From positions 1-61,925 of the forward strand of contig QHSL01000076.1 of assembly GCA_003220435.1 (NCBI GenBank): a stretch of 61,925 nucleotides of DNA. Reading direction: 5' to 3'. The stretch comes from Candidatus Rokuibacteriota bacterium. GTDB lineage: Bacteria; Methylomirabilota; Methylomirabilia; Rokubacteriales; CSP1-6. How positions within the stretch are numbered: position 1 is the stretch's first letter; the number at the start of each line of letters is the position of its first letter. A model generated the notes under the pieces. That model was not told where the DNA came from, did not search any database, and was given only the letters and a program-made list of their open reading frames with translations. Below are positions 21,951-25,656 of this stretch, piece after piece. The position numbers and the translations under genes are program-made.

Positions 21951-22005
21951 GAGCCGCAAGATCGACCTTCACCCGACACGCCCGCTCCCGAGGAGATCTC
22001 CGTTG

Positions 22006-23823
22006 ATGAGACGTACGCTGAAGAAGCTTGTGTTCGTGGAGCCGAAGTCAACCCATCTCCACATCTACAGCAGGGTCTGCATCCCTCGGCTCGGTTCGGT
22101 GCTCCTGGCCACGATCATGCGCGCCAAGGGCTACGACGTTCGCGTCTACATCGAGGACATCCACGACATCGACATGAGCGAAGTCTACTCGGCCGACCTG
22201 GTCGCGATCTCCGCGATCACCTCGACCGCGCCCCAATCGTACCGCCTGGCCGACAAGGTCAGGGAGGCGGGCGGCATCGCCGTGCTCGGGGGGACGCACA
22301 CCAGCTTTCTCCCGGAGGAGGGGCTCCAGCACGCCGACTTCGTGATCCGCGGCGAGGGGGAGTTCGCGTTCCAGGAGCTGGTCGACGCGATCCAGGCGGG
22401 CCACGGGTTCGAGAAGATCCAGAACCTCTCCTACCTGCCCGACGGCCGCGCGGTGCACCTGCCCGAGCGTCCCAAGATCGCAAACCTCGACGTGAATCCG
22501 ATCCCGGACTACCGGCTGATCACGGGCTGGAAGCCCGGCGGGGTCATCTCGGTGGCGACCTCGCGCGGCTGCCCCTTCTCGTGCACCTTCTGCTCGGTCC
22601 CCGGCATGTACGGGCACGCCTTCCGCACGCACTCGGTCGAGCGCGTGCTCCAGGAGCTCGAGTCGCACCGGGGCAACATGTACACGTTCTTTGCGGACGA
22701 CATCTTCACGGCCAACAAGAAGCGCTGCAAGGAGCTGCTGCGCGGGATGATCCAGCGCGACCTGACGCCCGACTGGGGCGCCCAGGTACGGACCGAGACG
22801 GTCGACGACCCGGAGCTCCTCCAGCTGATGCGCGATTCGCGCTGCTTCAACGTCTACGTCGGGTTCGAGTCGATCAACCCGCGCACGCTGAAGCTCTTCC
22901 AGAAGAAGCAGGACCTCGCGAAGATCGAGCGGTCGATCGAGCGGTTCCACGCCCACAAGATCCGGATCCACGGCATGTTCGTGGTGGGCTCGGACGAGGA
23001 CGACGTCGAGACGGTCGACGCGACCGCCGAGTTCGCATTGAAGAACGACATCGACTCGATCCAGTTCATGATCCTGACGCCGATTCCGGGCTCGCCGGAC
23101 TGGGAGCAGGTCTACGACCGCGGCAACAAGTACGTGATCAGCAAGAACTGGCAGTTCTACGACGGTCACCACGTCGTCCATCAGCCGCGCCGCATGAGCC
23201 CCTACGAGCTGCAGATGGCGGCGATCAACGCGATGGCGAAGTTCTACTCCTGGCGCGGCATCGCCAAGAAGCTCCTGAAGGGCGACAAGTACTACGCGGC
23301 GATCCGCTACTTCGGCAAGCGGATGATTCGCGACTGGTGGAAGGACCACGAGAACCGCCAGCACGTCGACTGGCTCAAGGCCCAGCTCTACGGCGAGGCG
23401 AAGGCCTTTAGCCACCAGGCGCTGACGCGAGTGGGGCTCCCGGCCATCCTGCTTCAAGACTCGGTGGGACGGCTGCTCCAGCGCTTCCTGGGCGAGCTTG
23501 GCGTCACCGTGGTGCCGCTCGCAGAAGCGGCGGCCGAGAGCGCGGCGCGGGCGCGCGAGACCGTCGACTGCTTGATCACGCCCATCGTGAAGCGCGCCGT
23601 CAAGGAGCGCGAGGAGTTCTACGCGAACCTGGCGTCGGTCAACGCGCTGCTCCAGAGCCGCTGGGAAAAGCTGCCGCGGGTGAGCTTCCCGCTCGTCGAC
23701 GGCCAGGGACCGGTGTTCGAGCCCTTCGCGAAGATCGGTCTCCTCTTCACCAAGAATCTCGATCGCATCCGCGACGCTTACAAGACCGCCGGCGTGCAGG
23801 AAGGCCTCTGGGAGGCCGCTTAG
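22006..23823 (+). CDS. B12-binding-domain radical SAM protein
   Basis: An N-terminal cobalamin-binding-like Rossmann domain (about 10-150; GSVLLATIMRAKGYDVRVY, ISAITSTAPQSYRLAD, VLGGTHTSFLPEEGL) precedes a radical SAM core with Cys189-x3-Cys193-x2-Cys196 (GCPFSCTFC). The C-terminal 200 residues are alpha-helical and unassigned. ATG 22006 has GAGGAG upstream; an open frame continues further up but would start before the promoter. 605 residues. Relatives include BchE-like, hopanoid methylase (HpnP-like) and methylthiotransferase-like enzymes; the substrate cannot be assigned. It is a single-gene transcript ending at a long-hairpin element. Confidence 0.88.
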   Translation: MRRTLKKLVFVEPKSTHLHIYSRVCIPRLGSVLLATIMRAKGYDVRVYIEDIHDIDMSEVYSADLVAISAITSTAPQSYRLADKVREAGGIAVLGGTHTSFLPEEGLQHADFVIRGEGEFAFQELVDAIQAGHGFEKIQNLSYLPDGRAVHLPERPKIANLDVNPIPDYRLITGWKPGGVISVATSRGCPFSCTFCSVPGMYGHAFRTHSVERVLQELESHRGNMYTFFADDIFTANKKRCKELLRGMIQRDLTPDWGAQVRTETVDDPELLQLMRDSRCFNVYVGFESINPRTLKLFQKKQDLAKIERSIERFHAHKIRIHGMFVVGSDEDDVETVDATAEFALKNDIDSIQFMILTPIPGSPDWEQVYDRGNKYVISKNWQFYDGHHVVHQPRRMSPYELQMAAINAMAKFYSWRGIAKKLLKGDKYYAAIRYFGKRMIRDWWKDHENRQHVDWLKAQLYGEAKAFSHQALTRVGLPAILLQDSVGRLLQRFLGELGVTVVPLAEAAAESAARARETVDCLITPIVKRAVKEREEFYANLASVNALLQSRWEKLPRVSFPLVDGQGPVFEPFAKIGLLFTKNLDRIRDAYKTAGVQEGLWEAA

Positions 23824-23838: not shown

Positions 23839-23982
23839 GCTGGTCGGCGTGGAGGGGGATGGGACCCTCTCCTCGCCGACGCTAGCTCATCACTCACCAC
23901 GCCCTAGTCAAACGCCGGACTTCCGCCGCCACTGACTACACGCGGCGCGGAGAGGGTCCCATCCCCCTCCACGCCGACCAGC
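23839..23982 (+). repeat. long-hairpin 3' element, copy 1 (after radical SAM gene)
   Basis: Arms 23839-23872 and 23949-23982 are a perfect 34-bp inverted repeat; a single mismatch and 5 more pairs extend it inward. The 76-nt interior begins CGCCGACGCTAGCTCA and ends CCGCCGCCACTGACT plus CACGCGGCGC, with a nested TAGTCA/TGACTA pair. The element begins 15 nt after the radical SAM stop. The same interior, with different arms, occurs on the opposite strand at 24064-24214. There is no U-tract. The rest of the 399-nt gap (23983-24063) shows nothing recognisable. Confidence 0.8.
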
Positions 23983-24063
23983 TCAGCGAAGCGTCCATGC
24001 CTCCTCCATCACCTCCGCGCGCATCGGTCGAGGATTCATAGGATCGAAGACTGAAGGGGTAGA

Positions 24064-24214
24064 CGGCGGGCGGGTGGGGCTGGGGTTGGGGTGCCCCTCC
24101 GGCGCCGCGTGCAGTCAGTGGCGGCGGAGATCCCGCGTTGGCTTCGGGCGTGCGCAGAGTGAGCTAGCGTCGGCGCGGGAGGGGCACCCCAACCCCAGCC
24201 CCGCCCGCCCGCCG
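24064..24214 (-). repeat. long-hairpin 3' element, copy 2 (after pyrE)
   Basis: Arms 24065-24100 and 24178-24213 form a 36-bp inverted repeat with one G.U-type position, one more pair at 24064/24214, then a mismatch and 6 pairs inward. Read on the minus strand, the 77-nt interior matches copy 1 closely (identical 16-, 15- and 10-nt blocks). The arm sequences differ from copy 1 but stay self-complementary. In the pyrE transcript it begins 8 nt after the stop codon, the same sense relative to its gene as copy 1. Confidence 0.8.
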
Positions 24215-24222
24215 CCGCCAAG

Positions 24223-24906
24223 CTACGGGACTTTGGGTTCTTGGACCGAGGAGGGACGACGGGAGTGGCGGCGGCGCACGAACTCTTCGTTTAAAGGCAT
24301 TCCTTTGGCGCAGAAGGGGCAGCTCTCCGGATCGTAGGTCGGGAAGTCGCGGCTCACCAGGCTGAACACGGGGCGGTTGTCGAGCTCGACGGACGTACGC
24401 CGCCAGAGGCATCCGATGCCGACCACCTGGCCGCCGAGCTGCTCCACCAGGTTGATCAGCAAGTTCAGCGTCGAGCCGGTGGACACAAGATCTTCGACCA
24501 GCAGGATCTTCGTGCCCGGCCGAACCAGGCGCTGGAACTCGACCGGGAGCGAGACGCGCCGCTTGCCCCCCGACAGCCCCTTGGTGCCGTAGATGACGGT
24601 GGGCCGCGACGGGTGCGCGCGCGCCACGCAATGGGACAGGATCAGCGCGGCCGGCCCCGTCGAGAGCACCATATCGAGCGGCCACTGGGCGAAGTGCTTG
24701 GCGATCACCGCGCCGAGCCCCTCGGTGAACGAGGGCTCCGTGGTCACCAGCGTCTTCTCGATGTACTCGGTCGTGTGCTGGCCGGAGGGCAGGAGGATGT
24801 GGTCGTTCGCATGATAGGCGCCGGTCCGCTTGAGGATCTCGAGGTGGATCTTCTCCCTGACCTCGTTCTCGACGGCGGCGGGGTCCTTCCTGGCGGCAGC
24901 GCTCAT
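24223..24906 (-). CDS. pyrE: orotate phosphoribosyltransferase
   Basis: PyrE makes OMP from orotate and PRPP in pyrimidine synthesis. The PRPP loop ILLVEDLVSTGSTLN is clear, with HANDHILLPSGQHTTEYIEK and DMVLSTGPAALILS earlier. The C-terminus carries a Cys-Pro-Phe-Cys pair (DPESCPFCAKGMPL), seen in one subgroup of PyrE-like proteins. Start at 24906 is favoured by GGGAGG 6-7 nt upstream; an ATG at 24927 adds seven residues. 227 residues. Convergent with the radical SAM gene and divergent from tsaB, with about 75 nt between the starts. Confidence 0.87.
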   Translation of the reverse strand: MSAAARKDPAAVENEVREKIHLEILKRTGAYHANDHILLPSGQHTTEYIEKTLVTTEPSFTEGLGAVIAKHFAQWPLDMVLSTGPAALILSHCVARAHPSRPTVIYGTKGLSGGKRRVSLPVEFQRLVRPGTKILLVEDLVSTGSTLNLLINLVEQLGGQVVGIGCLWRRTSVELDNRPVFSLVSRDFPTYDPESCPFCAKGMPLNEEFVRRRHSRRPSSVQEPKVP

Positions 24907-24968
24907 CCCGGCCCTCCCGGAACGCATTATCGCACGCGCCAGGGACCGGAGGCGCTTTGGGCGCGTGC

Positions 24969-24974
24969 TAGACT
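24969..24974 (+). promoter_or_regulatory. -10 box of tsaB (leaderless)
   Basis: TAGACT lies 7 nt before the tsaB ATG (24982) and there is no ribosome site in between. The -35 region is weak. The predicted RNA begins at or next to the start codon. Confidence 0.4.
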
Positions 24975-24981
24975 CCTCTGC

Positions 24982-25656
24982 ATGCGCACGCTCGCCGTGG
25001 AGACCTCGACGCTGGCGGGCGGTGCCGCACTCCTCGACGGCGACCTCGTCGTCGGTGAGTACGTCCTGGATATCCGGATCACGCACTCCGAGCGTCTGAT
25101 GGCGATCATCGATCGGCTCCTGGGCGATGCCGGTTGGTCGGTTCGCGAGCTCGAAGGTCTGGCGGTCTCGGTGGGGCCGGGCTCGTTCACCGGTCTCCGG
25201 ATCGGCCTCAGCACGGTCAAGGGGCTGGCCCTGGCGCTCGCGATCCCGATCGCGGCCGTGCCCACGCTCGACGCGATGGCGGCGATGCTGCCCTTCGCGG
25301 CGCTGCCCATCGTTCCGGTGCTCGACGCCCGCAAGCGCGAGGTCTACGCGTCACGTTACCGCTGGGACGGCGGGTCCATGCGGCGAGAGTGGGAATATCT
25401 GGCCATCGCGCCCGACGATCTCTCACGGCGTCTCGACGAGCCGGTGATCGTGCTCGGCGACGGCGCCGCTCAGATCGACTCGCCGCACGCGCGGCGGCCC
25501 GATCCGCCTCGCCGAGGGCCGTCGCCGGCGTGCGTGGGCACGCTCGGGCAGCGGCGGCTCGCGGGCGGCGACACGATCGAGGCCGCCGATCTCGTTCCCA
25601 TCTATCTGCGGCCGTCCGAGGCCGAGCTGAAGCGTCGTGGGATCGTTGTCGGTTGA
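24982..25656 (+). CDS. tsaB: tRNA t6A dimerisation/partner protein TsaB
   Basis: TsaB is an ASKHA-fold protein that pairs with TsaD in threonylcarbamoylation of A37. The 224-residue product begins MRTLAVETSTLAGGAALLDG and has VSVGPGSFTGLRIGLSTVKGLA, the family hallmark, and VPVLDARKREVYAS. ATG 24982 is the family start. The C-terminal part (from about 155) is Arg/Pro-rich and poorly conserved. It overlaps rimI, a usual neighbour. Confidence 0.93.
   Translation: MRTLAVETSTLAGGAALLDGDLVVGEYVLDIRITHSERLMAIIDRLLGDAGWSVRELEGLAVSVGPGSFTGLRIGLSTVKGLALALAIPIAAVPTLDAMAAMLPFAALPIVPVLDARKREVYASRYRWDGGSMRREWEYLAIAPDDLSRRLDEPVIVLGDGAAQIDSPHARRPDPPRRGPSPACVGTLGQRRLAGGDTIEAADLVPIYLRPSEAELKRRGIVVG

What the first reader, a model, noticed from the sequence alone, without database searches (positions are those of the whole stretch)
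23839..24214. Two copies of a long-hairpin 3' element with conserved loop but different, self-compensated stems
Copy 1 (23839-23982) has a perfect 34-bp stem; copy 2 (24064-24214, minus strand) has a 37-bp stem with one wobble. Their ~76-nt interiors are clearly homologous (shared blocks CGCCGACGCTAGCTCA, CACGCCC, CCGCCGCCACTGACT, CACGCGGCGC), but the arms differ in sequence while each stays complementary. In both, a single mismatch separates the long stem from a 5-6 bp inner stem. Each copy lies just after the stop codon of a gene (15 and 8 nt) and in the same orientation relative to that gene's transcript, which a randomly inserted repeat would not explain. It could be a 3'-end structure for termination, RNA stability or processing, or a mobile hairpin with a target-site preference for gene ends. 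I do not recognise it as a known family.
Basis: partly seen in the sequence, partly recalled or inferred. Interest (0 to 1): 0.78.

Follow-up and report, generated by a model that had tools for sequence, protein, structure and literature searches.

The report
Fixed-loop, changeable-stem hairpins after genes
The two hairpins belong to a previously undescribed family of about 150-base DNA hairpins, some fifty per genome in one group of uncultured soil bacteria, that sit just after gene ends with a conserved loop and fast-changing stems that stay perfectly paired, probably because DNA copying rewrites one arm from the other.

Summary
Both hairpins are at the stated places and far exceed chance. 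They are two of many: a survey of 1.26 Mb (23%) of this Rokubacteria-like genome gave 18 such hairpins against 0 in shuffles. Two loop families exist, A (GGCTGGGCTCCATCC) and B (CTGACTACACGGG; the window pair). Model hits at E<=0.001: A 31 and B 23 in this genome; A in 27 and B in 29 of 57 genomes of the taxonomic family; A in none of 38 others in the phylum. Hairpins follow a stop codon with the loop in gene sense (A 43/75, B 21/27; random expectation 12%). All 8 close pairs are head-to-head.

At orthologous sites 58 base pairs changed on both sides and stayed Watson-Crick, against 31 one-sided changes; 42 of the 58 are transversion-type, they cluster (p 0.0005), and G-U is not favoured over A-C. 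This points to DNA template switching rewriting the arms, not to RNA pairing selection. Orthologous loops can also be inverted, swapped (A/B) or lost. The conserved, sense-oriented loop probably acts in the 3' UTR; that is inferred. It resembles REP elements but fails their size, shared-sequence and transposase criteria.

The parts
23839..23878 (+). hairpin 1 (family B), 5' arm, 40 nt incl. inner stem
   Evidence: the repeat finder I3, 98% complementary
23879..23942 (+). hairpin 1 conserved loop (ACGCTAGCTCA...CACTGACTACACG)
   Evidence: alignment of 13 family-B hairpins; 84% identical to loop 2
23943..23982 (+). hairpin 1, 3' arm
   Evidence: the repeat finder I3
23983..24063 (.). 81-nt spacer between the two head-to-head hairpins
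24171..24214 (-). hairpin 2 (family B), 5' arm read on the - strand
   Evidence: the repeat finder I2, 95% complementary
24108..24170 (-). hairpin 2 conserved loop
24064..24107 (-). hairpin 2, 3' arm read on the - strand
   Evidence: the repeat finder I2
22003..23823 (+). upstream gene of hairpin 1 (B12-binding / radical SAM protein); stop codon 15 nt before the hairpin
   Evidence: gene call, Pfam
24223..25086 (-). upstream gene of hairpin 2 (phosphoribosyltransferase-like, pyrE-like by recognition; no Pfam hit at 1e-8); stop codon 8 nt before the hairpin
   Evidence: gene call; no Pfam hit

Best explanation
The pair belongs to a lineage-specific family of dispersed hairpin elements (about 120-190 bp) kept just downstream of genes. 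The heritable, conserved part is the 60-100 nt loop and inner stem, read in gene sense, which most likely acts in the 3' UTR of the upstream gene (termination, RNase III-type processing or 3'-end protection; inferred). The 20-54 bp arms have no conserved outer sequence. They stay almost perfectly Watson-Crick paired because, during replication, the nascent strand folds back or switches template and one arm is rewritten from the other (quasipalindrome correction). The same process can invert the loop and may allow loops to be exchanged. Shown: family, positions, orientation bias, compensated arms, loop inversion and loop-type change at orthologous sites. Inferred: template switching as the cause, and the function of the loop.
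For: Family: 18 hairpins in 1.26 Mb, 0 in shuffles; loop motif 27 times in this genome against 2 for the reversed pattern, and most motif loci fetched lie in a long hairpin; covariance models hit 27/57 (A) and 29/57 (B) genomes of the taxonomic family. Position: sense orientation with the stop close upstream in A 43/75 and B 21/27, null 0.116; sense-only v antisense-only 38:5 and 18:2. Arm correction: 16 orthologous hairpins show 58 WC-to-WC double changes, 31 single changes, 3 other doubles; 42/58 transversion type; adjacent clustering 18 v 9.8 expected, p 0.0005; single changes 5 G-U v 18 A-C. Stems overall: 2935 WC, 34 GU, 66 AC, 37 other. Paralogue outer arms are as similar as shuffled arms (0.57 v 0.54) although loops are 0.81 identical; orthologue outer arms 0.73. 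Loop inversion with related stems at livH/livM: G000 and G018 v G015. Template switching is described as homogenising inverted-repeat arms and inverting spacers (PMC8604942) and as creating and maintaining perfect hairpins with multibase compensatory changes (PMC8794818).
Against: No expression data, so the 3'-UTR function is untested. The sense bias means selection or insertion preference must also act, since template switching alone would randomise loop orientation. Spacers of 60-100 nt are longer than in the template-switch cases read. No ancestral reconstruction was done: single events were not placed on a tree. Many hairpins are orthologues of each other, so p-values are approximate. All data are metagenome assemblies.
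Confidence: 0.6

Rival explanations
1. A structured RNA (terminator or 3'-end stabiliser) whose stem is kept by selection on RNA base pairing; compensatory changes arise one base at a time.
For: 3' position and sense orientation; very stable folds; abundant compensated changes.
Against: G-U is not favoured over A-C in sense (34 v 66); double changes are mostly transversion-type and clustered; no U tract follows (1 of 109 with TTTT); inside the family-A loop no predicted pair shows a two-sided compensated change; loop pairs are invariant or vary on one side only.
Confidence: 0.2
2. A non-autonomous mobile hairpin (REP/REPIN- or MITE-like) moved by an unidentified enzyme that prefers gene 3' ends; head-to-head pairs are the mobile unit.
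For: Dispersed copies; presence/absence at orthologous sites; 8/8 close pairs head-to-head with 73-135 nt spacers; 3' preference as in REPs (PMC3733652).
Against: No Y1_Tnp (PF01797) in 9 genus genomes; no target-site duplication above shuffled pairs; no recent near-identical copies in the two best-sampled genomes apart from one probable contig overlap; absences at the livH/livM site look like losses.
Confidence: 0.3
3. Assembly artefact: fold-back chimaeras create false inverted repeats.
For: Metagenome assemblies; several copies lie at contig ends and four are truncated inside the loop.
Against: The same hairpins at orthologous sites in separately binned genomes, with conserved loops and gene-end phase.
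Confidence: 0.03

Closest known systems
REP elements / REPINs / BIMEs (GTAG and CGTC palindromic repeats, PMC3733652)
   Same: Dispersed palindromes in intergenic DNA, close to the 3' ends of upstream genes, often as inverted dimers
   Different: REPs are 20-40 bp; here 120-190 bp with 20-54 bp arms, a conserved 60-100 nt loop and arms unrelated between copies; no Y1 transposase found in the genus
Quasipalindromes corrected by template switching (PMC8604942, PMC8794818, PMC7202029)
   Same: Arms homogenised, multi-base compensated changes, spacer inversion
   Different: Known cases read here are scattered short repeats or RNA stems; here a whole dispersed element family with 60-100 nt loops appears to be shaped by it
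Intrinsic transcription terminators of high-GC bacteria, including those without a U tract (own knowledge)
   Same: GC-rich hairpin within about 30 nt after a stop codon
   Different: Arms 20-54 bp, loop 60-100 nt with conserved sequence, only some fifty detected copies per genome, no U tract
Integron attC sites (own knowledge)
   Same: Imperfect palindromes just after stop codons with variable, self-complementary sequence
   Different: No GTTRRRY/RYYYAAC core above shuffled level at the feet (1 of 218); arms are nearly perfect

Membership tests
REP/REPIN | short (20-40 bp) palindrome | tested here: not met
   median hairpin length 163 (A) and 151 (B) nt; REP size from PMC3733652
REP/REPIN | palindrome sequence shared between copies | tested here: not met
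   paralogue outer arms 0.57 identical v 0.54 shuffled
REP/REPIN | RAYT (Y1_Tnp) transposase in the genome | tested here: not met
   PF01797: 0 of 9 genus genomes; the search rang in 5 control genomes
REP/REPIN | GTAG or CGTC tag at the foot | tested here: inconclusive
   28/218 and 55/218 feet, a moderate excess over shuffled feet; no fixed consensus position
REP/REPIN | inverted dimers, 3' of genes | tested here: met
   8/8 pairs head-to-head; stop-codon proximity
Template-switch-corrected quasipalindrome | compensated changes in multi-base clusters | tested here: met
   18 adjacent v 9.8 expected, p 0.0005
Template-switch-corrected quasipalindrome | no preference for G-U intermediates | tested here: met
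   GU 34 v AC 66
Template-switch-corrected quasipalindrome | spacer inversion between arms | tested here: met
   livH/livM site: loop antisense in G000 and G018, sense in G015, with related stems
Intrinsic terminator | U tract after the stem | tested here: not met
   TTTT in 1 of 109; no terminator-like site near the window pair
Rfam families | match to a curated covariance model | tested here: not met
   none in the window; only microRNA-like matches below gathering score on a hairpin locus
Integron attC | R'/R'' core sites | tested here: not met
   1 of 218 feet

The most novel reading that the evidence does not exclude
The loop is itself a replicating or exchanging unit: it spreads between gene ends and between hairpins (families A and B replacing each other, in either orientation, on related outer arms), and new locus-specific arms are generated by fold-back DNA synthesis rather than carried along. 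This would be a kind of dispersed element with inherited loop and improvised stem.
Probability: 0.25. Interest if true: 0.88.

Novelty: new variant of a known kind. Interest (0 to 1): 0.72.

Why it matters
It offers a natural comparative dataset, hundreds of hairpins with orthologues in dozens of genomes, in which template-switch arm correction, loop inversion and loop replacement can be followed. That makes directly testable the open question of how long perfect stems evolve without passing through broken intermediates. It also identifies an undescribed 3'-end element in an uncultured bacterial lineage.

Tried and rejected
Rfam at gathering threshold and at E-value threshold: nothing beyond sub-threshold microRNA-like matches on a hairpin locus and a 6S RNA elsewhere. 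RAYT/IS200-type mobilisation: PF01797 absent from the genus. Target-site duplications of 3-9 nt: no excess. Spread by plasmids or phages: no plasmid match for the window pair; ten viral contigs carry the 16-mer of loop A but none has a hairpin there; none carries a 21-mer of loop B. A shared regulon: the eight of ten upstream genes with Pfam hits are functionally diverse. The 15-mer scan of genome contigs gave 96 stretches, of which only the AR34 contig, one of two genomes known to hold the pair, had two matches; the other stretches carried one match each and were not examined further. An automated orthology pass listed many inverted loops; most come from paralogous cross-hits between paired hairpins, one checked site (L202/L282) proved same-oriented, and only sites checked by eye are used.

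Full report
Observation. The two hairpins are present as described: 23839-23982 (+) with 40-nt arms at 98% complementarity and 24064-24214 (-) with 44-nt arms at 95%, folding at -104.8 and -103.2 kcal/mol, with shuffle z-scores of -14.2 and -7.4. The interiors are inverted copies of each other. The stop codons of the B12-binding/radical SAM gene (22003-23823 +) and of the opposing phosphoribosyltransferase-like gene (24223-25086 -) lie 15 and 8 nt away. Rfam has no match.

Not a local oddity. The interior sequence finds only this pair in the own genome by BLAST, but also a pair at the orthologous site in a second species of the genus (G016). G016's contig has the same length, 131,020 bases, as QHSI01000101.1, Candidatus Rokuibacteriota AR34. 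Its stems are altered but again complementary. Of the other genus members, five (L140, L141, L144, L145, L146) have one long hairpin with a 31-65 nt loop after these genes, one has a loopless 24-nt palindrome (L142) and one had none detected (L143).

Survey. In 1.26 Mb of the own genome, 18 hairpins with arms of at least 18 nt were found and none in shuffled sequence. Their loops fall mostly into two sets. Family A has GACCACGCGGCACGCG...GGCTGGGCTCCATCC...GGGAACGGGTC; family B, to which the window pair belongs, has GACCACGCTAGC...CTGACTACACGGGTC. The family-A 16-mer occurs 27 times in this genome against 2 for the reversed pattern, with similar contrasts in eight other genus members; 26 of 30 fetched loci have a long hairpin. 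Covariance models find family A in 27 and family B in 29 of 57 genomes of the taxonomic family, 31 and 23 hits in this genome. The number of candidates scored per genome was capped, so the highest counts are lower bounds, and E-values are rough. Outside the family, 0 of 38 genomes of the phylum have family A; family B was not searched there.

Where they sit. With a home-made gene finder (93% coding in the window), 109 unique hairpins were placed. The loop is read in the sense of a gene whose stop codon lies within about 40 nt upstream in 43 of 75 family-A and 21 of 27 family-B cases that could be scored. Random intergenic insertion gives 12%. Counting only unambiguous cases, sense to antisense is 38:5 and 18:2. 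Close pairs are always head-to-head (8 of 8) and of one family, 73-135 nt apart. Orthologues are counted separately, so these probabilities are approximate. Upstream genes are diverse.

How the arms evolve. Sixteen orthologous hairpins between the own genome and G016, a close relative with flanks near 90% identical, were aligned as duplexes: 444 pairs unchanged, 58 changed on both sides and still Watson-Crick, 31 changed on one side (18 A-C, 5 G-U, 8 other), 3 other doubles. Of the 58, 42 are transversion-type, which cannot pass through G-U, and the changes cluster (18 adjacent v 9.8 expected, p 0.0005). Across stems in loop sense there are 2935 Watson-Crick, 34 G-U and 66 A-C; the direction persists when inner pairs are left out, although it loses significance in the outermost set. 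Selection on a sense RNA would favour G-U over A-C. Outer arms of paralogues are no more alike than shuffled ones (0.57 v 0.54), while loops stay 0.81 identical; orthologue outer arms are 0.73. In contrast, predicted pairs inside the family-A loop are invariant or vary on one side only. So the loop is conserved as sequence and the arms are conserved only as a relation. DNA template switching is known to homogenise arms of inverted repeats, to cause multi-base compensated changes and to invert the spacer (PMC8604942; PMC8794818).

What happens at orthologous sites. In the livH/livM-like gap, G000 and G018 carry a family-B hairpin with the loop antisense and G015 one with the loop sense, on recognisably related stems. 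G014 and G019 carry a family-A loop there (antisense and sense, the latter truncated), G014 with related outermost arm sequence. G016 and G020 have no hairpin. Because five genomes share the site, the absences look like losses. At a second site (upstream of a serine-hydrolase-like gene) G013 and G018 have loop A antisense, G020 has it sense, and five others have none; a third site shows opposite loop orientation between G000 and G016. At these two sites the stems differ too much to exclude independent insertion. A fourth gene end carries A in two species and B in a third genome of another genus.

Interpretation. The most economical account is a dispersed gene-end element whose conserved loop is the selected part and whose long arms are kept paired by replication-linked arm correction. 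What the loop does is inferred from position and orientation only: a 3'-UTR role in termination, processing or stability. There is no U tract (1 of 109), so it is not a canonical intrinsic terminator. Mobility in the usual sense is unproven: no Y1 transposase, no target duplication, no recent identical copies in the sampled genomes.

Relation to known elements. It works in some respects like REP dimers, which also lie 3' of genes and pair up (PMC3733652), but REPs are 20-40 bp, share their palindrome sequence and are tied to RAYTs where a transposase is known; those features were tested and not met. I found no description of such an element in the papers searched, which cover open-access literature only.

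Limits. Metagenome assemblies, 23% of the own genome read, automatic gene calls, non-independent orthologues, no expression data, and no ancestral reconstruction.

Noticed in passing
L184, L192 (L322), L241, L175: Truncated family-A copies that lack one arm and half of the loop; the break always lies inside the loop. Either palindrome-provoked deletions or assembly errors.
   Followed up: partly
L237 (G000:C92 start), L240 (G000:C127 end), L252 and L270 (ends of G016 contigs): Several hairpins lie at or near contig ends; L237 and L240 have identical outer arms and 97% identical loops, so contigs C127 and C92 probably join there.
   Followed up: no
L178:283-466 (-): A 6S/SsrS RNA gene (91.5 bits, above the gathering score) near a family-A hairpin in another genus member.
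   Followed up: no
G014:C60:59918-60296: Three family-A loop motifs in direct tandem at about 182-base spacing, the only tandem array seen in the motif list.
   Followed up: no
5' arms of all family A and B hairpins: The 5' arm is strongly G-rich (1788 G v 758 C) and the 3' arm C-rich whichever strand is read; cause unknown.
   Followed up: no
   Followed up: no
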